From assembly GCA_037179385.1 (NCBI GenBank), contig CM074193.1, forward strand, positions 7,957,547-8,021,546: a stretch of 64,000 bases of DNA, in the 5' to 3' direction. Positions 10,801 through 56,400 of the stretch are shown here, in pieces. The notes beneath the pieces are model-generated. The model made no database searches, was not told where the DNA came from, and saw nothing but the letters and a program-made list of their open reading frames with translations. This DNA is from Holothuria scabra. Taxonomy: Eukaryota > Echinodermata > Holothuroidea > Aspidochirotida > Holothuriidae. Position numbers and translations under genes: made by a program. The first letter of the stretch is position 1. The number at the start of each line of letters is the position of its first letter.

Positions 10801-13800
10801 CATATTAATGTCAAATGGTAAAATTTAGATAATCCCATATCCTACATACAAATAAGTGTTTCACAAGTGGGTAATTAACAATTCAATTCAGTTTTAAAAA
10901 AGTTGTGACCAGTCTCTTTTTCAAATTACATATGCAATTGTTACAAACTGGGATGCAAAAAAATTCAAACTTTAAGTATTTTGCATAATTGTTGAATGTG
11001 GAACTTGACATATTATGCCAAATAAGAAGCACACCCTTTAAAAAACTACAAACAAACTTTGTCTTCATGGTTTTGATTTGATAAAGGACGAGTGGCTACT
11101 GTTGATCCTAACATCCAGTCAATACCAAAGGATTTTGAGATTTTGTTACCCTCGGTAATTGGTGAAAGCCCTCCACACTGGACAGAGATGAAGGAGGGCA
11201 CATCAAGACAGAAGAAGAATATTAAGACCCCTAGGTCGTCTAACCAGTGTAAGATGAAAGCTGGTGGAAATGAGAACAAACATGATGATTTGAAGACATT
11301 TGTTAGCTTGAGGAATGCATTCCTACCATTTCGTGGTGAGTGTCTTTGGTGATTATTTTATTGAGCAGGGGTGGGACTCAATAATGTTTGTATAAGATCA
11401 AGTTCAAGTTAAACTTTATTAAGTACCAAAAGGGAAATTCAATGCTCGCAATAACACATAAAAGTATCAAAAACATCAAAAGGTTAGCAAATATAGATAG
11501 TCACAGATTCAAACATAAAAACTCTTAAACACATGAAATTGTTAAAAGGATGTTAAGACTAATATTGAATGATATTAAACAATATATGAAAAGATAATAA
11601 CATAAATAATACAATACAAGACAAAGAAGATAATTAAGATGGGTAAAAATGTTCCAGTGATTAAAGTGATCATTGAAAAGATTAATACAATGGGGTATAA
11701 AAGCAGGTTTGTGCCTGTTTGTAGCGGCGTAAGGTAGTCTCATTCGACCACTACGAGGGATTATAGTACTATTAAGAATTGCATACTAGGGGATGGCTGC
11801 TATCATTGAGAGCAGTATTGATCTTTTACATCCATATGACGATGATATGATGAGTATATTGTCTACTGGTCTTCGCCTAAAATACGCCCCGTTTGTCTAA
11901 TAATTGAATCAATACGTTTTTTATCTGTTACGTCCACATTTCCGCCCCAACAAACAGTACAATACAGCCAAACACTGCAAATCACTGAGTTATAAAAAAG
12001 GCTTGAAATACAGCTATTGATGTTGAACTTGTTCAATTTATGGAGGCAATACAGTCTCGGGTTGACCTTTTTCACTACGTAGTCTATATGGTCATGCCAG
12101 GCAAGTTGATCATCCATTACCATGCCAAGGTACCTATAAGTAGAAACACGTTCGGCGACACTCTCTTTAATTATGACCTCTGAGGGTGATCTAGTAGTAG
12201 GCCTATTCCTAGAATCAATTACCATTTCTTTTGTCTTTTGTACATTAAGTTCTAGGAAATTATTATTACAATAATCCACGAAACGATCTCTTTGGTCCAA
12301 GTAAGTAGTATCTTCATCATTTACGATTAACCCAATCAAGGCAGTGTCATCAGCAAATTTTATTAAAGGACAGGAGTCATTGGACGATCTTGTATCTGAT
12401 GTGTACACTGTGAACAAAAAAACTGTACCTTGAGGTGCACCAGTGTCTGATCCTAAAATATTTGAAATACAACCAGAGGACTTGATATTGACATATTGGG
12501 AACGAGTAGTAAGATAGTTAAAAATCCATAAAATGAGATCATGCGGAACATTCGTTGCTAGCAACTTTTTCACCAATACATGTGGCTGGATCGTATTAAA
12601 GGCAGAGGAAAAGTCAAAATACATTATTCTAGCAGAGTGACCTGATTTAGTACGTTCAAGGTGTGAATACAGTTTTTCTGAACAATATAAAATAGCATCT
12701 TCTGTATTGCGTTTCGTCCAATAAGCAAATTGTAGGGGGTCTAAATATTCCTCCACAAAGGGTTTCATGTGCTTTAAAACAATGCATTCACATGACTTCA
12801 TTACCGCAGAGGTTAGTGCCACGAGTCTAAGGTCGTTCATACATGTTATAATTGGTTTCTTTGGCACTGGTATAATGCAGGAACATTTCCATAATGCAGG
12901 GATAGATTTCAAACAAAGTGAAAGGTTAAAAATATGCATTAAAATGTCGGCAAGTTGGTTAGCACAATTTTTCAAGACACGGGGTGTGAGCAGATCTGGG
13001 CCAGCAGCTTTCGACGCATTAAGACTAGAAAACTAATGGCATCTCTAGTTACACATAAAAATGGCTTAATATGTTATTCCCATTCAAAGACTTCCTGATT
13101 TCACTGGCGTGAGATGAGAAATCATAAACATCGAAACAATTGTAAAATTTATTTAGTTGATTTGCGTAGTCAGAAGAGGTATCAGAAGTATAAGAAGTTG
13201 CCTTGGTCAAAATACATATATACTGTGTAAGAATGCTCTGAAGAGCCTTTGAATCATGAAAACAACTTATGCAGTTTGTGAAGACACACAAATTGAATGA
13301 AACTGCAATATATGCACATCACTGTATTGTGTGGGTGATTTCAACTTGGTTAAACCATTATCTCCAACTGTTAAAGGTAGTGTGACATGTCAGCAAAATG
13401 ACCTCACTTTACTTGGTAGTTATAGAGTGAACTTTTCCATGGGAAAATCCATTGGAATTTTTCAATATCTTTTACAGTTCTCAAGTTATACCTCTTCAAA
13501 GCGTGAATGTTTCTAAAGCAAATTGTTGCTTATGCAAAAATATTGATGTTAGGGTGTTCCAAAGTGATGAAATTTCTTTTGTTAACCTTACATTAATTAT
13601 CTCTTAATTACTCATCAGATTGTTTATGGTTTGGCAATTGATCCTTACAAATTTCAAGGACAAAATTTAAACTCATGAAATAAAACCCTCAGGAAAAACT
13701 AGTGTTACAACTGTCCTTGAAATAGAGGTTGTAAATACAAAGGATAACATTAACCATATATGGTTTGTCCCTCTCATTACATCACAATATTTGCATATTT

Positions 13801-23870: not shown

Positions 23871-23872
23871 CT

Positions 23873-24312
23873 ACATCCTACAGTGGTGATAAACACAGTT
23901 ACATCCTGTAGTGGTGATAAACACATTTACATCCTGTAGTGGTGATAAACACAGTTACATCCTGTAGTGGTGATAAACACAGTTACATCCTATAGTGGTG
24001 ATAAACACAGTTACATCCTATAGTGGTGATAAACACAGTTACATCCTGTAGTGGTGATAAACAGTTACATCCTCCAGTGGTGATAAACACAGTTACATCC
24101 TGTAGTGGTGATAAACACATTTACATCCTGTAGTGGTGATAAACACAGTTACATCCTGTAGTGGTGATAAACACATTTACATCCTGTAGTGGTGATAAAC
24201 ACAGTTACATCCTGTAGTGGTGATAAACACAGTTACATCCTATAGTGGTGATAAACACAGTTACATCCTATAGTGGTGATAAACACAGTTACATCCTATA
24301 GTGGTGATACTC
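23873..24312. repeat. 28-bp minisatellite, ~16 units
   Basis: Unit ACATCCTGTAGTGGTGATAA plus ACACAGTT. Variants alternate CAGTT/CATTT and CTGTAG/CTATAG, and one unit near 24055 is 4 bp short. Continuous repeats without spacers. Confidence 0.95.
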
Positions 24313-31000: not shown

Positions 31001-34000
31001 GAGCTAATAATTATCCCCGAGAATGCTAGTCCTCAAAGAGCTAATAATTATGCATTACAAAGCTATATTTTTTTCTATCAATTAGTCCTCTAACAAGAAA
31101 GGAAAAGAAATTGATGTGTTGAGGGGGAGGGGGATGGACAAGGGGTATACTGTGACTCAAAAACTATCAATTGAAAGCCTCTGGGAGGGGTGGAGAAAAA
31201 TTTATTTCCCGGGGAGGAGGGTAATGCCTTATTTCCCCTATACATAAAAGGCAATTTTTTTCTTCTGACGGCAAAATTTCCCTCCAAATGAGGCAATTAA
31301 GGAAATACATATGTAGATAGGAGCTGGAGGAACCAAATAGACAATCAAATCTACAAGCATGGTCTTCAGGTTGGTAGGACAACTGCATTGAGGCATCTTT
31401 TCCTTGTTCTGAAGCATTTATTTTTTCATTCTAAAGTGATGGAACAATCAACAACCAAAGACAGCATTGTTCCTACAAAAGTGGCAACTGCAATGTTTCA
31501 AAGCCATTTATGGCAAACAGAGATGAGTAGTAGTTTACACAAAGATAATTTAAAGAACAGAGGGCAAGAATGCATTGATTGATATTTCAATGAATTCATC
31601 CCATATGAGTAATTAGAGGTTCACATGGAACTACAAAGTCCCCACAATGTTACTGATTTACACAATACATCCATCACATTTTAGAAGTTGTTTTAATATC
31701 AACCTTGAAATAAATACTGAGACCTTGAAAATAAACATGGCCTCAGCTGGAATATTCTGATTAATAAGGTTCAAATGTACAACATGAGATGAAGACAAGA
31801 CAGCATTCAACATATATGACAGTTCACTAATGTGAGGATATGATGTCACATGTGCTTGATTCATGTTCACCTTTTAATAGAAAATGTGACAAACTTACCT
31901 GTTCATGTCTTGAGAACCAAACTTCATATTTCAATGGAAATTTCACCACACTGCTCAGAATAAAACCCTCCAATCTATTAAGCTTTACAAGACCTTAGAC
32001 CCTTCTTTAAAACATGGGGGAAATTTCAACATTTTGGGGTTCCTAGCTAAGAGGTCTCATTTTACCCTTTATTTAAACTTATACTAATATTTACCAGATA
32101 TCAGAAGCATTTGTAAATAGTCCGTCAATCAGAGCTTCCGGCGCCATCCACCTGACAGGAAGCAATCCTTCACCTTCTTTCCTGTAATAATCACTCTTAT
32201 AAATATCTCGGGCAAGACCAAAATCTCCAATTTTGACAATTCTGCACTTTGCATCTTCATATCCTTTGCATGAAACTAGACAATTTCTTGCTGCCAAATC
32301 TCTGTGAAATGACATAGGTGCAGGAACATATAAACAGGACACTTAGGATAATTTATAAATGATTAAGGTATATTTAAACCAAAAATAAATATGCTTTATC
32401 TTACTAAAAGCTTTCCTTTACATTTTACAAAGAGGAAATTTCCCCTTTCAACAAGAGGATGGAAACTTTCACATCTTGCCTGAAAATTGTAGCAGATTTC
32501 AGCTGTGATATAAATGCACCTATGTATTACATCCAAAAGCAGTAATTGACTAACACTACATGTAATGATGCCATAAAATTTTGAACCTAAATTTGGCTTG
32601 TGATGTTAGATTTTTACACTACATAATACTACAAATATATATAAAATACTACATTTTCAAAGACATTTACAGAACATGCTTTCAACCTAAATTTGACCTC
32701 TAATGTTATGAAATTTACTATTAATCAGATTTTTACACTACATAATACTACAAATACATATAAAATATTAGATTTTCAAAGGTGCTTACAGAACAGAAAT
32801 CAATCAAGATTTCTGTTCCACTTTTAACAGTAATAGCATTAAGCTTCCTGCCACAGTCAATACGTCAGGTAGAATTGCCAAATATTTAACATGCCCACAT
32901 GACATGAACTGCTAACATGTCATTATACATTATTTTATCCTCCAATCATAACTGATTTGCAAGCATATCTGTTAATAACTTTCAGCTTTGCACTACATCT
33001 TTGCTTCAGTTAAGCAACAGATCTTTTCAGTCAGTGCATTCACTGAACTAGAAAGCCAAAAGGCTTAGTGATTCCTTGCCATATGATATATTGTAATAAT
33101 AATGAACATGGATGCCCACATGACAAGCATGAGATCCCTCACTAATACTGAGGTATACTAGAAGGTCAAAACCTTTTGAGATCATGTGACCCAAAATGAC
33201 CTTTCACACTCACTTAAAACAATAGGGAGCAACTACCTAAAAAGACCATCAACATGCTAAATATGAGCAATTCACAAACTGGGTATGGGCTCCCTCCACA
33301 GTTCAACAACCACATAAAATGTCATGTCTTCAAGGTTTTGCCCTTTTGTGACCCCAACCTTTGACCTCCACAAACAAAAGAAATCTCCCACGCAGTTACT
33401 GTATGATGCTGGTAAACTATGTTGTCTATTAACTTGATAAAGAGATATTTTTGAAACATGCTCCTTTAAATCAAAATTTTGGGTATTGAGGATAGCTCTC
33501 TATATAATGATGTCTCTATGATCCAAAAAGTTGACTGCATTGAGGTTAGTGTTACAACAAGCCCTAATCCTAACAGTCATCCATAAATTGGAACATACAG
33601 TAGAGACATCTCAACAGAAAGGTGTAACCTTGGCTATTTAGTGGTGGTCCTTTTGTAATTGTTTTTTGGTGTAATGACCTTCCCAATGACTATGAAATCC
33701 TTGAAAATTAACAAAAAATGGGAACACTAATAATCCAGAAATTAACAAGATTTGTAATTTGCCTTAATTTGTCTGCTTGTAGGAACACCACATAACAGAG
33801 TACAAGTCAAGTGTCCTTCGTTTGATACACAGTAGATACTATTAGGCTAGTTCTGATTACCTGAACTGCAGTACTTTCTGAAAAACAAGCCTTACTGAGA
33901 GGGCTAAATAAGTGTCAGACTAGATCTCCAGACAGGTAGGAAATGGTTAAAGCCATTGAGCTGTATGATTCAATCAGAAAACCCCTCAGGACACTGTGGC

Positions 34001-37000
34001 AGTCAAATGTGATGAATTAGGTATTAAAGATAACAGTGACCAGCAATTTTCACAGACTCTGGTGGGTCAGTTACAATTTGATTCATTCAGTTAGGCAATC
34101 TCAGTTCAAGCATGCTCAGGGGTATTTGATCCAAATGATCAGTTATTTAGTTCTTTTTATAAAACTAATTACCCGTGGTGTATTTAATTATCTAGTTCCC
34201 ACTTCCATGTCCTTATGAGGACAGTGGCACAAGGTTTGTCTGCAACTTTTAACAATCTTTGATACTAAATTTAATGTTCTCTTCATATTTTCTTTAGGGT
34301 TATGGAAGAAACAATGCTTGTATGTTCTAAAAGAAATTTTGGGCATCATACAGAGCACTTGATCTGTTCAAAGTTTACACTTATGAAGTTCCCCACTGAA
34401 CAATTCTTCTGCTTTGTGGGCATGGAAGCTTTCTCCAATATATTCAGACTATGTCCCCAAATAACCCTCATACAGCCTTTGTTTAACTCACATATTTCAT
34501 GAAAATCTATAGGCCAAGATACTTATGGCAAAATCAGCATACCTATGACAGAGATAAATTAACTAACATGTCAGCCTGATGAACAGTTTTTTCCTTTTTA
34601 ACTTTTCAGATTTTGTTCTACCCACTTACTCTTATGCGTATTTATACTGGCACTAAATGTTATAGGGCAAAACTTCAAACCAAAATCAACACTAGAAAGC
34701 CAACAGGCTTAGTGATTCCTTGCCATATGATATATCAATAGCAAACATGGAAACAAACATGACATGCATGAGATCCCATACAATTATCCTACTGAACTGA
34801 GATACCTTACCAGTGAGGCCAAAACTTTTTGACCTCATGTGACCCAAAATGACCTTTCGACCCCTTAAAAACAATAGTGATCACCTCACCAACACGTCCA
34901 TCAACATGAGCAATTCAAAATTAAGCTTAGTACAGTATGAGTATGGAAGTACTACCTCCATGGTATGAGATCCCTCACAGTTATCCCCCTAAAAATATTA
35001 TGTCTAAAGGGTTTTATCTTTTGTCACCTCAAACCTTTGATCTCCACAAACAAGAGGAATTTCTCACACAGCTTTAACATGCCAGAAAACTGTTTTGTCT
35101 CATTACTTGATAAAGCGGTATTTTGAAACCATTTTTATCCAAAGTTTGATCAATGGGGACAGCTCACCTTCTGAAGTCTCTGTCTTCCGATGCCTCTATG
35201 TTTCCAAAAGTCTGCTACTGAGGTTAGTGTTTAAACAAGCCCTCATCCAAACACTCTCCTACATGCATTGGATCAAAAACTGTGTTCTCACATACCCCAC
35301 GCTCGAGGTAACACTGTGTTACCGCACGCTCGAGTAACGTGGGACCGCAGGTTAACACAGGGTCGGTGTTTAAATTTCGATCCACCCCAAATCGCAGGGT
35401 TAAGCAGTTTTAAACATCGTGTTTGTTTTAATCAAGCAAGGTCACAGGTATTTATGGCACTGATGACAGGTATTTTCTTACATTTTACTGTAATCGGTGT
35501 GTAAAATATTTGACCTCGTTACTATGGTAATGCTATCCAACCAAAGAAACACTGGGTATGTGAGAACACAGACTAGAAAACACAGGGTTAGCCTGCGGTT
35601 TTGTCTGATTGTAAACACGAGTTAACACTAGGTGTTGCGGGGTATGTGAGACCAAGCCTAAAGAGACATCTGAACAGAGATGTGTCACCTTGGCTATTAG
35701 TGATGGCAATTTTTGCTTTATGGGGGAAATGCCCCACCCATTGTCTATGGTATCCTTTGCAAATTAACAAAAGCTGATATCTATATTAATCCATAATTTA
35801 ACAAGACTTTTAATTCGCCTTTTGTCTACTTATACTGTAGGTACAGCATAACACACAGTACAAGTTTTCCTTGTTTGATACACAGTATACAACATTACCC
35901 TTGCTCTTATTACCTGAACTAATTTTAAACGACAGCAGCAATGCAAAATAAAATCTTAATACTTTTGAAAAGTGTCATTAAGGGTAATCTTGAGGCAGTG
36001 GTTCTATGCATTAAGCTTAATGATACACTTTTTTTTTTTTGGGGGGGGGGGGGGGGGGGGATAGTGACATGGATAAAAATGAAATGTGAGACAAGAATTC
36101 CCACTCGATGATGATATTTGACATAACTATAATCCTTCACATAGGGGTTACTTTTTTGGTGCAGTTATCCAGATATATGCAGAGATGAGGCAAGTAGTAT
36201 GCTGATACATTTTATGCTATCAAAAATTTAAAACAAATTTTACAATGAAACTAAAGTGATAAATAATCACTGTAGAGCATATTGAAAATGTAAAGCAGAA
36301 GCACCAATGTAGATAGACACCAATGTTTCAATCTGTGTTCAACAAAAATCCTAACACAAACACACTATTTGTTCAATTCCACCAGCTTTTATGTAAAGGA
36401 CACTATTTCTGAAGGGTGTCAAGCTACAGTATTTCTAAGATGACTTTCAGTTTAGAAACTTGATCAAGTGTACATGAACTTCTCCATCTCCAGACAATGG
36501 CTAGGCAAACAACTTTTATTTGTGGTCAGATGAGACAAGATAATGTGGACAGTTATTTTATGCTTGATTTTGCAGAGGTGTGACTTTCATGGAGGTCTGA
36601 CATTTTGACCACAAATAGAGTACTAAATGCATGCAGGGAATGGCAGGAAATAGGAGTATATACAAACAATGGGCTGTCATGGTTGTTATGTAATGAGATA
36701 AAAATAAGCTTTCTTCAGAGGGTTTATAAGAGTCAATTAACACCACTTATACAGTAAAAAGCTTAAGTCAATTGAGCTGTATGTTTGTATGAGGTAATCC
36801 TTCAGGACACTGTGGGGATAACTGGCAGTCAACTGTGAAAAATAAGGCCAGATAACTGTTACCAAATGGCAAAGAATGGGTCAGTCACAATTTGATTCAC
36901 TCTATTAGGCAATGACAGTTCATGTGCACTGAAGGGTATTTGATACCAAATGATCAGTATAAATTAGGTTCTTTTTTGTAAAGCTAATTAACTGTGGTAT

Positions 37001-38393
37001 ATCTAATTAATCAATTCCCATTTCCAATTCATGCATGCTTGCATGCACATGTCCTCATGAGGACAGTAGGCACAAGGATTGCCAAACATTAGCACTTTTT
37101 GCCACTAAATTTAATGTTTTCTTCAGGTTTTTCTTTAAGATTATTGAAAAAGCAATGTAAGTATGTTATAAAAGAGATTCTTGTGCATCACACAGAATAC
37201 TCTCTGTTCAAAGTTTACACTTATGAAGTTCCACATCAGTCATCTACTTAGTGTGCATAGAAGCATCTTCTAATATTTTCAGACTATGTCCCTAAATGAA
37301 CCTTGTACAGACTGTTTAAACTCACATGTTCCACATCAGTTTCATGAAAATCTATTTACTTGTGGCTGCAAAATCAGCATACCCATGAGCATTGAAGCAT
37401 GTATGCTAGCCTGATGAACACATTTTGCCTTTTAAGATTTTATATTTTGCTCTGCCCACTTTTCATGTATTAATACTTGGAACTTAATGTAATAACAGGG
37501 TACAATTTCATGCCAGAATCAACATACTGCACAGTGTTCTACCATGTGATGTGCCTTTTTGTGCACCTAAGACCTTCTTCCTATGAGTTTGCTTCAGTAC
37601 TTTACAAATACATTTTCAAAATTACCTCACTAAAGAATTTAAATAGTGAAGTTAATGATCTGTTCCAAAAAAATTATATACCTATGCCTTTTACATTACC
37701 CATGCCAAATTATTCGTACGCTTTCACCCTAACCGCTCATGTATATTAACTTCAACAGTTATACTCTTTTGAGATTTAGTGTTTGCAAGGTTTAGATGTT
37801 TTGAACTCTGATGACCCCAAATGACCTTTGACATCCAATAAAAACAATAGGGGTCATCTACTCAATATGGACAATCCACTTGGTAAATATGAGACTCCTG
37901 GCAGTTACGTTTCTTGACATATGGTGTTAACAAGTTTTTGAGCTTTTCATCTCTAATGACCCCAAATGACCTTTGACCTCCACCAAAAATAATGGTGATC
38001 ATCTACTTGATATGGGCAATCCACCTGCTATGTATGAGATCCCTCACATATTCCCTTCTTGAGATACAGTGTTTACAAGATTTTGACCTTTTTTCCTCTG
38101 GTGACCCCAGATGACCTTTGACCTCCATCAAAAACAATAGGGACCATCTACTCAATATGGACAATCAGCATGGTAAGTATGAGATTGCTCACATTTTTCC
38201 TTCTGGAGATATCGTGTTTACAAGCAATTTCCAAGGTATTTACATTTTGACCTCTGGTGACCCCAAATGACCTTTGATCTCTACCAAAAAAAATAGGGAC
38301 CATCTACTCAATGTGGACATTCTACATGCCAAGTTTGAGATCCCTGGGGGTTACCCTTCTTGAGATATCGTGTTTACAAGCAGGCGTCACACA

Positions 38394-38436
<43 letters not shown>

Positions 38437-41400
38437 CATCACCATCGCATAGATTCCTTGCCTGCCTTCGGCAAGGAATCAAAAACACTAATGACAAACA
38501 AATTCATTTGTTTGTTTAAATCCACCATCACAAATTTGTTTTAGCAAAGTTGTGATGCAATTCAGTGACAACTTAGTTCTTCTCAAATAACTAGAGGCCT
38601 GATGTACCTGAAAGGAAAACTTCAAGAATTATGTTTCTCTAATTTTAGGCACTCCATAAAAAAATCTTGTTTTGTAAAACTATCAAATTTATTACAACTG
38701 AACTTCTGTTAAGGTAAATGGTTTACATTGGTAAACTCTTAATATAAACAGCATCCATTGATGACACTTTAGTTGCAATCAAATCTGTAGTTTTAAATAA
38801 TCATATTATAAATTCAATTACCTATGTACGAAGTGCATTTCTTCCAAATATTTGCATCCTCTTGCTACATCTGTTACTATGTCTACTAAATCTGCTTCAG
38901 TAAGTTTAGCTTCAGTTTCTTGAGTAGCTCTGGCAGCCCTCAGGTAACTGAGGAGGTCACCCCCTTCCATTAACTCCAGGATAATGTAATGTGGGTCATT
39001 GTCCAAACAGACTCCAAGTAAACCCATTATATTAGCATGGTGAAAGTTGCTGAAATTAGGAAAATCAGATGTAAAAAAAAAGTAAGATGGCATAATGTAA
39101 ACAGCAACCAAAATGCTAAACATTGTACTACAAGGACAACTCTATTGGTTTCCAGAACAGACCCTACTTATCCCCCCTCCCCCCCCCTCCCTGTAGCCCT
39201 GTAACGTGAATTACATGAACTTAGTTTTTGTGTTTGGTGAAAATAATATACAATAGCAAAACAGTTTCAAAACCAACAACAGCTTTGGAATGGTCAGCCT
39301 TACATTATCAAACTTTCCGCTATGATACTCCTGAGGGCCCTGGAGAAGCACACAACGTGTTTGTGTGCATCTCTGTAAGAGGATGTAGCCCTGTAACATG
39401 AATTACATGAACTTAGTTTTTGTGTTTGGTGAAAATAATATACAATAGCAAAACAGTTTCAAAACCAACAACAGCTTTGGAATGCTCAGCCTTACATTAT
39501 CAAACCCTCCAATATGATACTCCTGAGGGCCCTGGAGAAGCACACGTGTTTGTGTGCATCTCTGTAAGAGGATGATCAACATCACCGTACCACCACATCT
39601 ATCCTAAAGGAACTAAAGAGGTGACAAATTAAATGTCTGTCATGGTAGGTTTGCATTCAAATGTAAACTCCCATTCTCCCATCCGAAACTTACCAAAATG
39701 AAAAATTGTTAGCCACCAGTAGAGGGCATTTCTTGTATACATGACCACTGAGGGTAAAGCTATTGTCTAGGGCCTGAATTGATTTTCTTATTTCACCAAA
39801 TCAACTTGAAATGCATTTTTTTCCCCCAGGCTTTTAAGAAGCTAAATCCTTTTACAGAAAGTTGAGAAAACCTTGAGTATTGTGAAAATTCTATAAAAAA
39901 AAAAATGTATATTTCAAATCTGAGTGAAAAGCTTTTATGATAACACAGACACCAATTCCCTGAATAAGACAAAGGGCAATACTGCCCTCTATGATTATTC
40001 TGTGCCATTCTGAGTGTCACCTCCACTGACCTCATTAACATAGCTTCCTTCAAGAAATCTTCCTTCTCGTCATCTGTTGCTCCCTTCTTCAAAGTCTGTT
40101 TGAATGAAAATACATTAAAGGCTCAGCTACATTCTTTAATGTGTCTCTTTATTTTAACCAAAAACAAAAAAAACATAAAAAAGAAAATGTTCCATTTTTT
40201 TTTTTAATATTTATCCAATAAACTCAGACTAAGATACAAACGAGAACAAAATTCCCTTAAATCTGACCTTGATCATTTGATGGGCAAAATGACTTTCAAA
40301 AATGCAAACTAAACGGTGAGATATAGTACTATTATTCCACAATAATAAACTTTCCACTACAGATTTTTACTACAAAAATCTTCATTTCGAATAAAAAGGG
40401 ATTTCTTTACTTTCATCTGTTCCAATTGCTCTATAAACAAAATGAAAAAAAAAAAAGCAATAAACATAAAGCATACCAAATAACTAGGTAAATTTTCATC
40501 AAGACATCACAAGTGGCATGCCATATGGTATGTAAGTTCAGCTGTAATGTTTATGGATATGTTTTACGTTTTAATTACCTGTTTCCAATTTACCATGTTC
40601 TACTTAAGTTTTATTATGAAGATAGGTTTATGGAAAAAAACCCAACCAAATGACATATTATATTAGTTAGAAAGTCGCATTTAAAGAATAAGTTACCCAC
40701 CTTCACAGCAACTTTTGTCTTTCCAGATGTGTCTGTTAAAATGTTTAATGCAACACCCTCAAAAACCTCACCAAAAGCACCACTTCCCAAAAACGTAAGA
40801 AGCTTGAGCCTCTCTCTAGGAAACAGAGGGAGCTGTGATTTGCTACCATCAGCTGAAGTCCTATTAAAACAATGAAATACAAAGGATATTGAAGGTTGTC
40901 AAAAGTTAAGCTGCAAGAGCTGTATTGTTTTAACCTAACCATATATACATTTTAACAAAGCCAAGCTGTGTTTATTTCCCCAAATTTCATCCTAAGGTAG
41001 AACAGGAACACACATAAATAGTTCTATCCTTTAAAGCACTTATTGATGGAAGGTAAAAGAATGTGGTGGTCCATTCGAGGATTTCTCTCCATCCATCCTA
41101 TCAAACCATGAACTTGCCAAAGTATTACCACAGGTAAGTAAGGTTACATCATGTTAATATGAGGTAGAGGGCAGGAAGGGGGCAATGTATATAGATCTCT
41201 CCTTTATAGCACTTTCTAAAATCCAAATAAAAAACTACACAACTTTTCATTTTGTTTTTTGTTCAAGTGAACACTTGTAGCAAATCCCAAAATGTGGACA
41301 CTGCTTCACTTTTCAATTACACAAATATATTTTTCAGGTACTACCCCAACATCACTCACCCCTACACTACTAAAAACTCTTACAATGAACAGCAACCATA

Positions 41401-44400
41401 TGCAATCACTACTTTACTACACCTACAGGATTTTACCAATCTATTTCCTGTCCCACTCTTTCACCTTCTAACAAACAACTACTGCTGGTCTACACAGATA
41501 CAGTCAGCAGAGCAAGGCCAGGGCCATGCCCCCCTCCAAGTTCTAAAAAAATTATTTTGTGATGGAACAAAAACCAGAATGCAAAAATGCATTGAGGTTT
41601 CGATGATACATACATGCTCTTTTCAATAAAATGCTACATTTCTTGTAACAACTGGTGACCCAAAATAGCCTTTGTCTCCACCTGTAAGTGACTGGTTTTT
41701 CTTTCATACTGTGCCTTAAGATATTCTGCAAACAAGGTTTTCAGAGTTTGATGCCAGGTGATACCAGATGACCATTGACCTCCACAAAAAACAACAGGTA
41801 CAGTACTTTCAACTCACCATAGCACATCCACATACTAATTGGGAAATCCATCCAAGTTTCCTACCTTGAGATATCCCATTTTGACAAGTTTTTCAAAGTT
41901 TGACTGATCATGACCCCAGATGTCCTTTCACCTCCACAAAAAATAACCTTATACAGACCATCTTCTCACCATAATTCATTTACATACTAATTTTGAAATC
42001 CATCCACCTTTCATACCTTGAGCTATCCTAAACAAGTTTTTCTGAGTTTGACCCCCATGACCCCAAATGACCTTTGACCTCTACCAAAATCAATAGGATT
42101 CTTCCTCCCATTATAACGCATCAACATATCAAGTTTGAAATCAATCCAAGCTTCCTACCTTGAGATATAGCGTAAACAAGAAGTTCGGAGTTTGACCCCA
42201 TGTGACCCCAAATGACCTTTGACCTTCACCAAAATTTATTGGGTTATTTCTTACATCATAACGCATCAACATATCAAGTTTGAAATGAATCAAAGTTTCC
42301 TACCTTGAGATATAGTGCAAACCAGGATTTCGGGGTGTGACCCCATGTGACCCCAAATTACCTTTGACCTCCACGAAAATAAATAGGGTTCTTTCTTACA
42401 TCATAACGCATCAGCCTATCAAGATTGAAATGAATCCAAGTTTCCTACCATAATGTATCATGTAAACAAGGATTTCAGGTTTTGACCCCATGTGACCCCA
42501 AATGACCTTTGACCTTCACGAAAATAAATTGGGTTCTTTCTTACATCATAACGCATCAGCCTATCAAGATTGAAATGAATCCAAGTTTCCTACCATAATG
42601 TATCATGTAAACAAGGATTTCAGGTTTTTACCCCATGTGACCCCAAATGACCTTTGACCTCCACGAAAATACATCGGGTTCTATATTACATCATAACGCA
42701 TCAACATTTTAAGTATGAAATTGATCCAAGTTTTCTACCATGAGATATCATGTAAACAAGGATTTCAGGGTTTGACCCCATGTGACCCCAAATGACCTTT
42801 GACCTCCACCAAAATCAATAGGGTTCTTCCTTACATCATAACGCATCAACATGTCAAGTTTGAAATTAATCCAAGTTTCTTACCATGAGATATCGTGTAA
42901 ACAGGGATTTCAGGTTTTGACCCCATGTGACCCCAAATGACCTTTGACCTCCACCAAAATCAATAGGGTTCTTCCTGACATCCTAACACATCAACATATC
43001 AAGTATGAAATTGATCCAAGTTTCCTACCATGAGATATCGTGTAAACAAGGATTTCAGGTTTTGACCCCATGTGACCCCAAATGACCTTTGACCTCCACC
43101 AAAGTCAATAGGGTTCTTCCTGACATCCTAATGCATCAACATATCAAGTTTGAAATTAATCAAAGTTTTCTACCATAAGATATTGTGTAAACAAGGATTT
43201 CAGGGTTTGACCCCATGTGACCCCAAATGACCTTTGACCTCCACCAAAATCAATGGGGTTCTTCCTGACATCCTAACGCATCAACATATCAAGTATGAAA
43301 TTGATCCAAGTTTCCTACCATGAGATATCGTGTAAACAAGGATTTCAGGGTTTGACCCCATGTGACCCCAAATGACCTTTGACCTCCACCAAAATCAATG
43401 GGGTTCTTCCTGACATCCTAACACATCAACATATCAAGTATGAAATTGATCCAAGTTTCCTACCATGAGATATCGTGTAAACAAGGATTTCAGGATTTGA
43501 CCCCATGTGACCCCAAATGACCTTTGACCTCCACCAAAATCAATGGAGTTCTTCCTTACATCATAACGCATCAACATATCAAGTATGAAATTGATCCAAG
43601 TTTCCTACCATGAGATATCGTGTAAACAAGGATTTCAGGGTTTGACCCCATGTGACCCCAAATGATCTTTGACCTCCACCAAAATCAATAGGGTTCTTCC
43701 TTACATCATAACGCATCAACATATCAAGTATGAAATTGATCCAAGTTTCCTACCATGAGATATCGTGTAAACAAAGATTTCGGGGTTTGACCCCATGTGA
43801 CCCCAAATGACCTTTGACCTCCACCAAAATCAATAGGGTTCTTCCTGACATCCTAACGCATCAACATATCAAGTATGAAATTGATCCAAGTTTTCTACCA
43901 TGAGATATCGTGTAAACAAGGATTTCAGGGTTTGACCCCATGTGACCCCAAATGACCTTTGACCTCCACCAAAATCAATAGGGTTCTTCCTTACACCATA
44001 ACGTATCAACATATCAAGTTTGAAATTAATCCAAGTTTCCTGTCTTGAGATATTGTGTAAACAAGGATTTTGGTTTTTGACCCCCTGTGACCCCAGATGA
44101 CCTTTGACCTCAACCAAAATAAATAGGGTTCTTCCTCTCAGTATGGGGTATCTGTGTACCAAGTTTGAGAACTGTCAGATCTTCCCTTCTCAAGATATCG
44201 TGTAAACAAGCAAAGTGTCACAAACACACACACATACACACACACACAGTCGTGTTTTTACACACAACTGAGGACTTCATTGTTATATCCATTGTGTCTG
44301 CTTACTTAACCCTAACCTTCACAATAGACTGTCTATTGTTAGACAACCGAGGACTTGAGAAATCTATTGAATTTACTACCGAGGACCTGGAAGTCTATTG

Positions 44401-47400
44401 TTTAGGTCCTCTGTTTTACACAAAGACAAAGCCACACATACACACACACACACATACACACATACATACACACACACGCCATCATGAATGCATAGGTTTC
44501 TCTTTTCATCGAAACCAAAAATGACTAGATGGACCAAAAACGTCCAGTGCAGATAAACATTAATTCTACCCATGTCAGGTGATGCCTACAATCTTTTTAA
44601 TTTTAAATTCTTTTCAAGCCGATGAGGCAGGAGTGCCCAACCAACCAATCACTATTTGTTAAAGGTTTGGAAAATATGAAACAAAAGAACAAGAAAAAAT
44701 AAGAAAAATTGTTATGAGATTTGTTCCTGAAGAGAAATCCCCCAAACTCCTTAGTAGATTGACACATTTGGGTTTGCCATACTGGCACAGGACTGAAATA
44801 CCACATAACAGTTGCCACCAGTTGATGTTGGATCACAAAAATTTATGCACCCCTATCCTTATGGCTATGAGACCAGGCTCTGCTAGTAGGAACTGGAGTG
44901 TAACATTTACTTTACAGTTTTATCACTTCGTAACATTGTTTACATGCACACCTAGTAAAAATAGGATCTTCAGTAACAATTGACCTAGGGTTAAGTCTGA
45001 GTCTTCCTACAAAGAGACAATAGGCTAACCAGTTGGTGTAATTCCAGCAATTTTTGGCCCCACAGTTAGATGGGATTTAGCAACACATCAACACAAACGT
45101 GTTACATAGTGCTGGCTAGATAAAACAGTAAAATTCAAATATAAAATTTAAGTTCAGTTTCAAATACCATTCAAATATGATTCAAGTCCTCCCCTTTAGT
45201 TGCCTCTTATGATAGGCAGGGAAAACAATAGACATATTTTACAACCCCCCAACCCCCCGTCAACAAAGGTGGGCAGAGAGGGTTGAGCCTCTACAAGTTT
45301 ACATAATTATCTACAAGTTAAATAAGTACTTTCTAGTTACATAAGTACTTACAAGTTACATAAGAACTTACAAGTACTTACAAGTTTCCATAGGTACTTA
45401 CAAGTTACATAAGTACTAACAAGATACATAAGAACTTATAAGTACTTACAAGTTTCTATAAGTGATTCAAGTCACATAAGTAGTAACGAGTTACATAAGC
45501 ACTTACAAGTTTCCGTAAGTACCTACAAGTTTACAAAAGTACTTACAAGTGTGCATACATCTGGTTCCCTTCCATGGTGGTGGGATAATCCCTCAAAGTT
45601 GCTAACTCTGCATCTGTTCGGTATGAAACTGTTCCGACATAAGGAGCCTTCTTTTCATGGTTTCTTTGCTTAACTTAAAAAGAAAACAAAATTTTGGATC
45701 TGATTACAAATTTTCTACACTATCACTGGACCATAAAAGAAAATTTCAATGACTTTTACTTGATACATTGATCACATGAAGTAACTCATTAGACTAGCAG
45801 AAGCCAAATAGCTTATATCAAAATTCTTTGCCTCATACTTGTGGAAAAAAATACAAAAATAGATTACAGCCTAGAATGATTTAAAGGTCAAGAGCAGTAC
45901 CCCCAAACTTATTTTGAAGCAACAATTAAACATTACGATTTTCTCCTTATTTTCCTTTAAAGTATCTTCATCATATTTTTGGACTTCAGCATTGCATACT
46001 TAGGGTGAACCAAGCAGTAGATTTCACATTTGAAGGGAAACAATGAGGTCACATGACTCTAAACAGCCAATCATGAAATGGGATGGTCTACTACCCTACT
46101 TCAAGTTGGGATGACTGCTCTTGCCCTTTAATATGCTTTTTTTTTTACTTTAAAATATTTTCCAAAAATCTTGTGACTTTCAAAAAAAAAAAACAAATTA
46201 CACCAAAAGCAGTAAAATCATCAACAATACAAAAAATTTACATATACTATGAGTGACATGATACCTGGTCAGCTATATTGTCTTTAATAAAATATACTCA
46301 CCACAATATAATAAAAGAATAAGAAGCACTACAAGCACCAATACCACAGCCACCACGACACCAATGATGATACCTATGTTAGAATCAGCTAAAAAAGATA
46401 GACAATGGAAACAAAAAAACACAAACATTTCATTAAACACATTATTTATTTTATTTCAGATAGTTAAGTAAAGGATTTTGTAAACTGTTATGTATGAAAA
46501 GAGCTAGTTGGGAGTTTTATCCAACTTCTTTGATAAGAATTTCAACCTGTGCAACTAGATAAACATGCGCAAAAATGCAGATCACACAGGTGAACAGCAG
46601 AGCATACACTTTTCATAGCACCTGACAGACATTACTACCCAATAATTTAATTAGTCCGTTAAATTAGAATAGCACAGAGCAAACAAAAGTGCTTTGTCCA
46701 TTTCACTGAATGAAGTCATCTACTTTTTACTTGTACTCATTACTGACACATCACCATGTTCCCTATTGCTGTTAAAACAAGCATGATGAATAAATGTCCT
46801 TTTTTACAAATTTAGCCTACAATTAAGGCAAAATTTTCCTGAATAATAAAATTGTTGTTCCTTCAACAGCCTAAAGGGGCTAGTAGAGCTGATGTCAATT
46901 ACTTGTGACAAGTTTGAAGAACATCATACATTAATACTTTAACAACTCTTCTAAGAAGCTTCACTCATACTAAATTATCTTCTACTTACATAATCAAAAA
47001 AGGGAAAAATTTTACTTTTATCAACAGGGATTTGAAAAAGATTGATCTAATGGTTAAAGTCTCTGGCTATGAATTTGAAATAAACGATTTCAATCACTGA
47101 TAAGTCTATCATAACCATTCCAGTAGTCCGCCAGATGTAGAGAATCTATGAGTTTGACCATTTATCATCAAGATGAGAGTAATAGGTATGTCAAACACTA
47201 ATGAAACTGTGAACAAATACAGCAAGCCCCTTTAATACTTGTTGAAGGGTGAACCTACCTGCTGGTTCAGGTTCCACCATGAAAGGCGCACTTTCAGGAC
47301 CAAACTCTCCACTCCCGATATCATTCGCTGCTGATGCTCTAAATATATACATGAAATTTTCAGTCAGATTCAGTTTCCACTGTGTGTTTGTACCTTCATA

Positions 47401-53400: not shown

Positions 53401-56400
53401 TTCAAATGTGATTCCACTTATTTCCTCAGATTCTCCTTGCAACTGTCGATCTTCTTCTCGGGCATTAGTGTGCATTACATATACCTGCCAATGACATTCA
53501 GATTATTTTTTCATTTTACTGGTTGGTTGGAACTGTATGAGAAAGATTAACATGCATAATAAAAAGACAATTTTTATATCTTAAATACAGGGATAAACTT
53601 GAGACTTCAGCAAAAAAAAAAAAAAAACGAGCCTGAGACATCTAAAAAAAGAGGAAATTGAGAAGCAGGCACTAGGGCAAGGGGTCCAGGGGAGAACTTA
53701 AGGGCCCCTAATGGCATTGATATCATTTTAATATGGACATCTGACTGGATAGAACTCTGAGGGCTGTTTGTATCAGTTCAATACCTGAGATTTATGATAC
53801 ATTTATTAAAAGAAATTTTTGGGGTACTTGACTTGACAAAAAGAGGAAATTTCCTCTAAAGAGAGGAAGTATCTCATGCCTGTAAATAACATTCCACTTC
53901 CAAATTAAATACCTGTTCTTTTGTGGGGAGCTACTCATGACAGACCAGTGTGATTCAGAGGTCTTATGCTTAAAAGTTTGGTCTGCTTAATCTTTTTGTT
54001 GTCCTTTTGAGGATCTTATTCCATGAGGGAACAGCACTTGTTCAGGAGTAATTGTTTGGAATTGGTGCTGGCTGTCGCCAGAGAGTGGATTGGGCTTAGA
54101 ACACTTTTTTATAGGAAAGAAACATTGAACCATAAATCCACATACAAAGAACTTATCTCGCACATACTTAATAATTCATAAACAATGTGTCATGTTGCTT
54201 TATTATTCAGTTTATGTATGTATATCAATTCCAATTTCCTTGTCACCTTTAAATATATTCCATCTTAAAATTTGTCACCCATAAATATGTGTTTCCTCAA
54301 AATGTGAAGGGCAAGAGTTGGGCATTATAAGTACGTCATCTACTGTTTCAAAAGCTCACAGGCAATAGTGAGGAATGCCGCTGTAAGTTGGAGGTGAGGA
54401 AGGATTAAAAACCAGTCGGCTTTATGATTCCTTGTCTATTTCGATCTGACGATTCAATTGGTACTTCAATTGGTTATTTAGTTAAATAGATGTGGTGCAC
54501 TGTCTTGTTTTCCCTATCCCATTGCTTATGCTGAGCAAAAAGTCCAATGGCAGTAGGTTCTATTAGACACACTGTACTGTGGCACAAGAATCAAAACACT
54601 AATGTATTGAGGTATTTAATTCTGTGGCAAACAGACAAGACGAAATGAAGGGTTCTAACTGTATCTACGATATTTTTCAAAGGATTAAATATGAGTCTTT
54701 GGCCAAAATGGCCTCAGATTTTTGCCTTCCTGGGAAATGTTAATAATCATTTTTTTTCTTTTGTTGAAGATAAAACTACAAGGTGCTAAAATTTATGACA
54801 GCAGATTTGTTCATTTGAGACAGTTACCAGTTAGCAGTTAACATGGTCAATTTTTTAAATATATGACCAAAATGGTGTGCTACAAAAAATTTTCATACAA
54901 CTGTGTGGCAGGTAAATAGGGGACAACACTACAATATATGCTTCGCTTGGTTTCATTCTATGTGATCTGCATAAAACACATGTTTGCAATAATTTCTTTC
55001 TCTCAACATTGCAAATCTATAAACCAAATTTGAAAAAAGGAAATAAATAACTGCCATGCTGCGACACCATGATTACAAGCCATTCAGGTCTGTAGCCTGG
55101 CAAGGGGCTGAAGGGGAAGAAATGTCTAGGGGAGTTTTTATCAGGGGAACAAATGAGCAAATGTGATAAAAGCAAAATTTACTCTCTACGAGGCAAAAAA
55201 GATTACAAACTGAAGCCAATTACAAAGTTTCGCAGTTTGAACTCTGGTACCATGTCCTCAAATGACCTTTGACCTGAACAAAAAACAATAGTGTTCTTCT
55301 TCTGCACAAGACAAATCTATACATGAAATATGAAGTGTTTGGCACTGCTATCTTGAGATAAACCATGCTATTTTCAAGGTTTTGGCAATTTCATTGGTGA
55401 CCTCAAATGGCCTTTGACCTTCACCAAAAACAATAGGGTTCTTCCTGTCAACATGAAAAATCTATATACCAAATATGAAAAGAGTTGGTCACACCTAAAC
55501 TGAGATATCCTATTTACAAAGTTTTCATTTTTTACCTCTGGTGACCTGAAATGATCTTTGACTTCCACCACAAAGTAAAGGGTTTCTTCCCCTCACCATG
55601 ACAAATCTACATACCAAATATGAAAATTTTCCAACCTTTCTACCTTGACATATTGCATTACAAGCAGTCTAACAGAAAAAAAACACACACGCACACCACA
55701 TCACCATTGCATAAGTAACAGAGTAGAGAAAACAAGCCAGTGAGCTACAAACGGAAAAAAAAGGACGTGGCCTGCTCCACTTAAACCAATAGGTTGGAAA
55801 CTGGCCATAAAACTCTATCTAACTAGCTTACTAACACATCACCATCGCATAGATTCATTCATTAACCTATGGCAAGGAATCAAAAACATGCAACTAGCTA
55901 ATTTTTCAAAGACTTGGTATCTTCGTAATTTATACTCACAGATAAAACGTACCTGAACAGTATACTCAGTTTCCTGCTCCAAATCTCTGGCTATATAACT
56001 TGTGCCTTGGGTTGTAAATGTCCGGTCACTGACCTCAACACTGTACTCTAACGTATCACTTGGTCCATTCAGTTCAGCTGGCTCCAACCAAGAAATTAAA
56101 GCTTGACTTGCAGTCTGAGATTCAAAGGTAACATTTCGAGGTGCTGACGGAACTAAAAATAAAAAAAAATGATGTTATTCTCTCTTTAGAGAAAACAAAG
56201 AAATAAAGTATTTAAAGGAAAAACTCAGCCAACCCAAATTAATTTTGAAATAACAGCCTAATCTCAGAATTTTCTTCTTATTTCTCTTCCAAATATCATA
56301 ATATATAATTCAAGCAGCAACTTCTAGTAATATTCATAATTAAGGAGAGAAATATTGCCATGGGATTCTCAAGAGCAATCCATGAATAGCTTAGTCAACC

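What the first reader, a model, noticed from the sequence alone, without database searches (positions are those of the whole stretch)
41596..44528. Mobile-element satellite in which every unit is a four-half-site nuclear-receptor cluster (DR1+DR4+DR4)
On the - strand most units read AGGTCA-1-AGGTCA-4-GGGTCA-4-GGGTCA, all half-sites in one orientation. Thirteen of fifteen regular units keep an exact DR1. Chance cannot explain four consensus half-sites per unit, and the box is also conserved in the arrays at 37.8-38.4 kb and 55.2-55.6 kb. The element could act as a dispersed, multivalent nuclear-receptor platform, or the motif may serve the element itself. It lies inside a ROS1 intron.
Basis: partly seen in the sequence, partly recalled or inferred. 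Interest (0 to 1): 0.88.

Follow-up and report, generated by a model that had tools for sequence, protein, structure and literature searches.

The report
Transposon arrays of nuclear-receptor half-sites
A sea cucumber genome (very likely the sandfish) holds over 40,000 copies of a four-part motif spelled like nuclear-receptor (hormone-receptor) binding sites; the copies examined closely lie in arrays inside jumping DNA elements and their four parts differ less than the rest of the repeat, so a host receptor likely binds them, predicted to help the element spread.

Summary
At 41.7-44.2 kb, 15 regular 145-bp units read, on the - strand, AGGTCA-1-AGGTCA-4-GGGTCA-4-GGGTCA; 13 of 15 keep an exact DR1 and 11 of 15 all four half-sites. 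The array is the centre of a non-autonomous Helentron (HINE, 41572-44521). The assembly statistics match Holothuria scabra. The exact four-half-site cluster occurs 43,848 times (reversed control 0). In 154 units from 18 arrays not chosen by the box, half-site columns vary 0.41 times as much as the rest of the unit (bootstrap 0.35-0.47); spacers vary like the rest. In the main family, variants shared between insertions are 3.5-fold rarer in half-sites; private variants are not (transitions) or only partly (transversions) depleted. Constraint thus seems to act mainly while elements spread. I read the motif as a host-receptor docking platform serving the element; binding is untested. Against: one consensus per array gives a weaker signal, the conserved block extends past the half-sites, the outer spacing is not specially kept, and flanks of 3 of 69 Helitron Rep loci lack the box. 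Precedents: HSF-1 sites in Caenorhabditis Helitrons, MSL sites in Drosophila DINE-1-like elements, receptor sites in Alu.

The parts
41572..44521 (-). Non-autonomous Helentron (HINE) 'B', 5' end at 44521
   Evidence: ends defined from 12 copies; left-terminus pattern found 2,783 times in the genome with up to 3 mismatches
44506..44521 (-). 5' end: T-run (44517-44521) and 11-bp subterminal inverted repeat (44506-44516)
   Evidence: sequence beyond the run differs in the 8 right ends printed; run of 2-6 in 9 right ends
44495..44500 (-). internal inverted repeat complementary to part of the 5' subTIR
44433..44477 (-). microsatellite ((CA)n/(CACATA)n on +) between 5' end and array; a second CA run lies at about 44223-44249
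41714..44212 (-). central tandem array: 17 units as cut here, 15 of them regular 145-bp units; right limit approximate
42193..42225 (-). example of an exact four-half-site box: AGGTCA-1-AGGTCA-4-GGGTCA-4-GGGTCA on the - strand; 11 of 15 regular units have it exactly
41596..41606 (-). 3' subterminal inverted repeat
41578..41593 (-). 3' palindrome (stem-loop) AATGCA-AAAA-TGCATT, followed on the - strand by CTGGTT, the last bases of the element
   Evidence: 9 left ends: 6 identical, L029 one stem base and L039 one loop base changed, L036 cut off by the fetched stretch
37769..38485 (-). related element A: 4 boxed units, microsatellite 38388-38434, 5' subTIR and inverted repeat 38452-38480; its 3' end was not found, 37769 is the start of the array
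55221..55886 (-). related, diverged element C: 3 boxed units, short decayed microsatellite, 5' subTIR 55871-55881; left limit approximate
33046..33370 (-). related, decayed element D: 3' palindrome and subTIR (33070-33080) and box remnants at 33187 and about 33351; right limit approximate
34691..35060 (-). related, decayed element E: 3' end and subTIR (34714-34724), box remnants at 34840 and 35021; right limit approximate
40614..40898 (-). open frame holding the start of the ROS1-like kinase domain, downstream (in gene sense) of the element
   Evidence: Pfam PK_Tyr_Ser-Thr 4.9e-4, below the curated cut-off; frames 38818-39141 and 32091-32342 above it, the latter best matched by ROS1 in the PDB; an fn3 frame at 55839-56174 lies upstream

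Best explanation
The array is the centre of a non-autonomous Helentron (HINE) whose 145-bp unit carries four same-direction RGGTCA half-sites that differ less between sampled copies than the rest of the unit, and a host nuclear receptor of the DR1-binding kind likely binds them and would help the element to be copied. Shown: the HINE anatomy, the genome-wide copy number, the lower variation of half-sites than of spacers and flanks in the sampled units, and that the depletion of changes is strong among variants carried between insertions but absent (transitions) or partial (transversions) among private ones. Inferred: that the binder is a nuclear receptor (RXR, HNF4 or COUP-TF class, from recalled preferences); that binding raises copying, for example by opening chromatin or driving transcription in germ cells so that transposase supplied by an autonomous Helentron reaches the DNA; that tandem duplication raises the number of docking sites. 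After landing the sites are predicted to be mostly free to decay, so effects on ROS1 or other host genes would be incidental at most loci.
For: HINE parts in the order given in the literature. 5 of 5 loci chosen only by the element's end carry arrays of 11-15 units (box-masked hits) with 6-11 exact four-half-site boxes each. Half-sites point the same way relative to the ends in 11 of 11 fetched B loci with an end in view. Diversity in 154 units of 18 arrays not chosen by the box: half-sites 0.121, spacers 0.271, rest 0.298; halves/rest 0.41, bootstrap over arrays 0.35-0.47; half-site columns below the 25 bp on each side, p=2.9e-5. Template rank 1 of 145 positions there and in the B family, 2 of 145 in the 43 units of the arbitrary regions plus window, in non-B arrays and in all units. 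B family: variants shared by two or more arrays 111/2866 in half-sites, 134/1062 in spacers, 1812/13481 in the rest. Pooled private transitions 15/1872 in halves against 56/7154 in rest, OR 1.02. In translations held mostly from H. leucospilota, the two most variable of 13 box residues lie on the spacers (0.56 and 0.66 against 0.89-0.97). The genome has 48 matches to the nuclear-receptor DNA-binding domain, 16 of them over 59 or more of its 70 positions; their specificity was not examined.
Against: No binding data. Private transversions are depleted too (pooled OR 0.57, p=0.009; B family alone OR 0.54, p=0.11), so constraint after insertion is not excluded. With one consensus per array the 33-bp box ranks only 22 of 145 (H2-H4: 4 of 145), with one per family 29 and 14 of 145. 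The conserved block extends beyond the box: the template shifted by +10 scores 0.922 against 0.923, and half-sites against spacers is p=0.094 (0.027 with all units). The outer spacer has length 4 in 43,848 of 45,874 exact clusters with 3, 4 or 5, but in the aligned units it has more gaps per column than the rest (0.041 against 0.008), so spacing is no argument for DR4 binding. Flanks of 3 of the 69 Helitron Rep matches hold no unit and no DR1, so the box is not known in any autonomous partner. One A-type 5' end (L017) with its microsatellite has no unit behind it.
Confidence: 0.42

Rival explanations
1. Passive inheritance: the box is simply the best-preserved part of an old unit, for reasons of DNA structure, replication or local conversion among the four similar pentamers, with no bound protein.
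For: The conserved block is wider than the half-sites; on array or family consensuses the box is not the extreme stretch (ranks 22 and 29 of 145); S1 length is not specially kept; the four half-sites are themselves a short internal repeat, so conversion could homogenise them.
Against: Within the box, differences concentrate in spacer S1 (0.479) and are fewer in the half-sites on both sides of it (0.196, 0.109); in the main family shared variants are 3.5-fold depleted in half-sites but not in spacers; a similar pattern shows in translations from a second species.
Confidence: 0.25
2. Host platform: the dispersed clusters have been kept after insertion as nuclear-receptor enhancers or as a sink for receptors, wiring genes into a hormone or immune response.
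For: Private transversions are depleted in half-sites (pooled OR 0.57, p=0.009). In H. leucospilota coelomocytes, 3 of 20 published primer pairs listed for differentially expressed genes fit inside this unit. Precedents: HSF-1 sites in Caenorhabditis Helitrons (PMC6927752, abstract and one section read), HNF4 sites in Alu (PMC3252374, abstract read), MSL sites in DINE-1-like elements of D. miranda (passage in PMC4067079).
Against: Private transitions are not depleted (OR 1.02); three transcripts are anecdotal, and repeats occur in transcripts whether or not they regulate them; no expression or binding data here.
Confidence: 0.15
3. Another protein reads the box: TCF/LEF (CCTTTGA core inside the DR1; consensus recalled), a zinc-finger host factor, or the Helentron's own Rep/zinc-finger protein.
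For: The DR1 contains CCTTTGACC, one letter off a recalled TCF site, and the TTT before the outer half-site is also conserved. The oyster paper mentions, as a possibility, satellite motifs recognised by transposase-related proteins (PMC7492417).
Against: TCF would not explain the conserved TGACC of H2 and H3, which lack CTTTGA; Rep is thought (recalled) to act at the ends, and flanks of 3 of 69 Rep loci lack the box.
Confidence: 0.15

Closest known systems
HINE / non-autonomous Helentrons with central tandem repeats (DINE-1, Cg_HINE of oyster, Pearl, DTC84, MgE; DINE-1-like elements are also reported from sea urchin)
   Same: subTIRs, inverted repeat, microsatellite, central tandem units (mostly 140-180 bp in oyster) in fixed orientation, 3' palindrome, T-rich ends (PMC4067079 passages; PMC7492417 parts of results and discussion)
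   Different: a text search of PMC7492417 finds no mention of transcription factors, binding sites or nuclear receptors; here the unit has four receptor-type half-sites and the host is a sea cucumber
DINE-1-like elements as MSL-complex binding sites in Drosophila miranda
   Same: an element of the same class supplying binding sites for a host protein complex (one passage in PMC4067079)
   Different: MSL and dosage compensation there; original work not read; no link to receptor half-sites in a tandem unit seen
Caenorhabditis Helitrons carrying heat-shock elements (PMC6927752, abstract and one section read)
   Same: Helitron-class element holding several copies of one transcription-factor motif and spreading it through the genome
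   Different: there binding and heat-induced expression were measured and the factor is HSF-1; here the motif is of nuclear-receptor type, in a Helentron satellite, with selection inferred from sequence only
Nuclear-receptor sites in Alu (DR2, PMC1785376, search listing; HNF4, PMC3252374, abstract)
   Same: a transposable element multiplying receptor sites, direct repeats of RGKTCA in the first case
   Different: Alu is a retroposon (recalled); here a four-half-site box is the core of a tandem unit, so one insertion can hold many boxes (6-11 exact in each of 5 loci)

Membership tests
HINE (non-autonomous Helentron) | subterminal inverted repeats of at least 11 bp at both ends | tested here: met
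   11-bp GGTTTCGATGA / TCATCGAAACC at 41596 and 44506
HINE (non-autonomous Helentron) | inverted repeat near the 5' subTIR and microsatellite inside it (DINE-1 and Cg_HINE form) | tested here: met
   GGTTTC at 44495 and microsatellite at 44433-44477
HINE (non-autonomous Helentron) | palindrome at the 3' end | tested here: met
   41578-41593; of 9 left ends 6 identical, 2 with one base changed, 1 cut off
HINE (non-autonomous Helentron) | no target-site duplication, insertion at T-rich site | tested here: inconclusive
   T-run of 2-6 at the 5' boundary in 9 right ends and TT at the 3' boundary; no empty site examined
HINE (non-autonomous Helentron) | shares ends with an autonomous Helentron encoding Rep/helicase | tested here: inconclusive
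   69 Rep matches in the genome, not sorted into Helitrons and Helentrons; flanks of 3 of 69 fetched, no shared subTIR or box found
nuclear-receptor response element | RGGTCA half-sites as direct repeats spaced 1-5 | tested here: met
   DR1, DR4, DR4 exact in 11 of 15 units and 43,848 times in the genome
nuclear-receptor response element | bound by a nuclear receptor | not testable with these tools
   receptor DNA-binding domains exist in the genome (48 matches); no binding data
Helitron-dispersed transcription-factor platform | occupancy and response of nearby genes | not testable with these tools
   only indirect: 3 of 20 published primer pairs for differentially expressed transcripts of H. 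leucospilota fit in the unit

The most novel reading that the evidence does not exclude
A selfish rolling-circle element has made a four-half-site nuclear-receptor platform its own propagation signal and, by copying it in tandem, has seeded a sea cucumber genome with over 40,000 exact clusters, enough to act as a receptor sink and to place thousands of genes, immune-responsive ones included, under one receptor.
Probability: 0.2. Interest if true: 0.85.

Novelty: new variant of a known kind. Interest (0 to 1): 0.6.

Why it matters
Why Helentron elements carry central tandem repeats is, as far as I recall, unsettled. Here the repeats hold a readable motif whose half-sites look constrained during spread, which turns that question into a binding assay. 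If a receptor binds, it is a case of an element tying its copying to a host receptor, and a genome with one exact four-site cluster per about 27 kb on average (43,848 in 1.19 Gb) is an extreme natural test of receptor titration. Practically, translations of the unit are annotated as over a hundred hypothetical proteins in H. leucospilota, and published qPCR primers there fit inside it.

Tried and rejected
Exact pattern scans of viral contigs and of prokaryote genome contigs for the box: 0 matches each. Canonical Helitron (5'-TC, CTRR-3', A|T insertion), considered because CTAG or CTAA lies near right ends in the window: rejected, since copies differ right after the T-run and the other end carries subTIR plus palindrome. 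Box at 59,469: a lone DR1 without the rest of the unit, left out. Coding function of the ORFs across the array: rejected as translations of a repeat whose 145-bp period turns the frame with each unit. First conservation pass used column numbers off by one (144 model columns against 145) and the box-masked alignment, and gave a weak result (box rank 24 of 144, ratio 0.75; ratio 1.01 in 16 units of the arbitrary regions); realigning whole units gave the figures reported. That alignment uses all letters, which favours the box slightly. Simple singleton count (halves 12/2866, rest 62/13481, p=0.88) was replaced by a count that drops bases already shared in a column, since variable columns hide singletons; by family it gives for half-sites against rest, transitions then transversions: B OR 1.24 and 0.54, family 5 1.40 and 0.77, family 1 0.52 and 0.51, none below p=0.08 alone; all 212 units taken as one set 1.14 and 0.89. 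Spacing conservation as evidence: dropped. Search for a partner with the box: 3 of 69 Rep loci, negative. A text search for ATGACCTTTGACCT found 3 papers: one is PMC7161275, one a cloning oligo in a sea urchin paper (passage read), one a human gene paper (listing only).
Full report
OBSERVATION. The window holds a 145-bp tandem array at 41.7-44.2 kb. Of its 15 regular units, 13 keep an exact DR1 and 11 keep all four half-sites with spacings 1, 4 and 4. In the whole window 120 RGGTCA lie on the - strand and 26 on the + strand.

SOURCE. The whole assembly has 1,192,178,128 bases in 31 contigs, the longest 79,750,544 and the tenth 53,516,681. The published H. scabra assembly has 31 scaffolds, 1.19 Gb, longest 79.75 Mb and N50 53.52 Mb (PMC11082199, passages read). 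The identification rests on these numbers. A translation of the array matches hypothetical proteins of Holothuria leucospilota: 9 of 11 hits in the first search, the other 2 unnamed, and 111 of the 120 rows listed out of 339 in a profile search, the other 9 listed rows being unnamed and 219 not shown.

WHAT IT IS. Comparing copies shows fixed ends (9 left and 9 right ends from 12 copies). Read on the - strand: a T-run; an 11-bp subterminal inverted repeat; a short inverted repeat of it; a TG-rich microsatellite; the tandem units; the second subterminal repeat; a palindrome; and CTGGTT. This is the anatomy of a HINE, the non-autonomous form of a Helentron (PMC4067079, passages; PMC7492417, parts of results and discussion). 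The B element spans 41572-44521. A second family (A, D and E in the window, C in its right end) has another subTIR (GATTCCTTGCC) but the same plan and a like 3' end (AACCAGAAAGCC in L015, L023 and L027 against AACCAGAATGC in B, on the + strand; D and E differ in a base or two). The B end pattern occurs 2,783 times with up to 3 mismatches, a B unit-flank pattern 17,718 times with up to 2. The genome has 69 Helitron Rep matches, several in open frames over 2,000 aa. The element sits between frames of a gene on the - strand whose piece at 32091-32342 is closest to ROS1 in the PDB.

COPY NUMBER OF THE BOX. The 18 fixed letters of DR1+DR4, up to one mismatch: 110,173 places, reversed control 6. Four exact half-sites: 43,848, control 0; with the outer spacer of 3: 1,636; of 5: 390, controls 0.

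IS THE MOTIF CONSERVED? To avoid picking copies by the motif, units were found with a profile in which the 33 box columns were masked. The profile itself came from the window's 24 units. Searched: 20 arbitrary 10-kb regions (position 21.0 Mb of contigs 1-20; units in 4 of 20), the window, loci chosen by a non-box stretch of the unit (L029-L036), by the element's end (L038-L040), one arbitrary stretch without units (L037), and loci chosen by the box (L001/L008, L041-L044), which were analysed with and without. The window was handed to me because of the box, so its 24 units are not strictly blind. 224 hits gave 212 units in 23 arrays; 12 hits were dropped as short or cut off. L002-L007 overlap L001 and L008 and were left out; L051 and L052 came later and are not in these counts. 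Mean pairwise difference per column, 154 units and 18 arrays not chosen by the box: half-sites 0.121, spacers 0.271, rest 0.298; ratio to rest 0.41 (bootstrap over arrays 0.35-0.47); half-sites below the 25 bp on each side, p=2.9e-5; below the spacers, p=0.094; spacers against rest p=0.57. In the 43 units of arbitrary regions plus window: 0.140, 0.276 and 0.361. The same template slid round the unit ranks 1 of 145 in the 154 units and in the B family, 2 of 145 in the other sets; the spacer-minus-half contrast ranks 5 to 11 of 145. By part, all 212 units: H1 0.196, S1 0.479, H2 0.109, S2 0.195, H3 0.094, S3 0.056, H4 0.084, rest 0.331. Other families spell the outer part TGACCTCTGG, TGACCTCTCG or TGACCCCCGG, that is, another spacer but still a half-site; in winC and L010 the outer half-site is not exact. 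The result is weaker on consensuses: one per array, box rank 22 of 145; one per family, 29 of 145. The conserved block goes on past the box (CTCCACCAAAA and beyond), and shifts of +9 and +10 score nearly the same (0.922 against 0.923). An earlier pass with an offset error and a poorer alignment gave a weaker result.

WHERE DOES SELECTION ACT? In the B family (121 units, 11 arrays) variants seen in two or more arrays, hence carried through copying or recurrent, fill 111 of 2,866 half-site cells, 134 of 1,062 spacer cells and 1,812 of 13,481 other cells. Private changes, counted only for bases not already shared in that column and pooled over three families (two of which include box-chosen loci): transitions 15/1,872 in half-sites and 56/7,154 in the rest (OR 1.02, p=0.88); transversions 24/6,678 and 136/21,466 (OR 0.57, p=0.009). 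So constraint looks strong while elements multiply and weak or mixed afterwards. Private variants may partly predate insertion, since whole arrays are copied; the test therefore leans towards seeing constraint.

SECOND SPECIES. In 139 segments from the 121 proteins held (mostly H. leucospilota), anchored on a flank upstream of the box, the 13 residues over the box are 0.89-0.97 uniform except residues 6 (0.56) and 10 (0.66), which lie on the spacers S2 and S1; residues downstream range from 0.54 to 0.97. These proteins were found by similarity to this unit, so the check is not free of bias.

EXPRESSION LEAD. In an RNA-seq study of H. leucospilota coelomocytes under LPS, poly(I:C) or heat-killed Vibrio (PMC7161275; abstract, the section on DEGs and the section with the primer table read), 3 of 20 primer pairs listed for differentially expressed genes (Unigene6841, 1366, 1518) fit units of this window as facing pairs, the best with 6, 5 and 2 mismatches in total and products of 33-263 bp; the best of the other 17 pairs has 12 or more. 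The unit is thus very likely in transcripts there. It does not show that the box regulates them.

MECHANISM. I commit to an element-serving receptor platform. The genome has 48 matches to the receptor DNA-binding domain. DR1 of AGGTCA is the classic site of RXR, HNF4, COUP-TF and TR2/TR4 class receptors (recalled); RGKTCA direct repeats spaced 1-5 are named as receptor sites at the start of the abstract of PMC1785376 (listing). A receptor active in germ cells would open the element and help copying; elements that lose half-sites would leave fewer copies. Binding, the identity of the receptor and the effect on copying are untested.

KNOWN OR NEW. Helitrons spreading HSF-1 sites (PMC6927752), DINE-1-like elements providing MSL sites (passage in PMC4067079) and Alu spreading receptor sites (PMC1785376, PMC3252374) are known kinds. 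Searches that showed no report of this combination: satellite DNA + nuclear receptor + transposable element + direct repeat + AGGTCA, 0 papers; Helitron + nuclear receptor + hormone response element, 0; Helentron + tandem repeats + echinoderm, 1, the HINE paper; sea cucumber + Helitron + tandem repeat + Holothuria, 2 genome papers, one seen in passages and one in the listing only; sea cucumber + transposable element + transcription factor binding + nuclear receptor + tandem repeat, 1, a fish genome paper; Helentron + transcription factor binding sites, 6, of which only PMC4067079 was looked into. The library holds open-licence papers only.

Noticed in passing
window 33046-33370 and 34691-35060: Two more decayed HINE copies of the GATTCCTTGCC family with box remnants; sequence around them looks alike on both sides, so they may be a local duplication.
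   Followed up: partly
H. leucospilota proteins P0001-P0121: 111 of 120 listed rows are annotated H. leucospilota hypothetical proteins (two named 'Secreted protein' by one source) that match translations of this repeat array, i.e. likely annotation artefacts.
   Followed up: partly
PMC7161275, Table 6: Three of 20 published qPCR primer pairs for differentially expressed genes fit inside this dispersed repeat, so those assays are unlikely to be specific to one gene.
   Followed up: yes
window 11863-13032 (- strand): Reverse transcriptase ORF of 389 aa (RVT_1) lying among exons of a DNA polymerase A family gene (theta-like, name from recall) on the + strand.
   Followed up: no
window 23872-24309: 28-bp minisatellite, 15.7 copies, 95% matches.
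   Followed up: no
L017 5360-5470: A-type HINE 5' end with microsatellite but no boxed units found in that 10-kb region: a truncated copy or an element with another centre.
   Followed up: partly
window 59469: Single exact DR1 with little similarity to the unit around it; chance or a last remnant.
   Followed up: no
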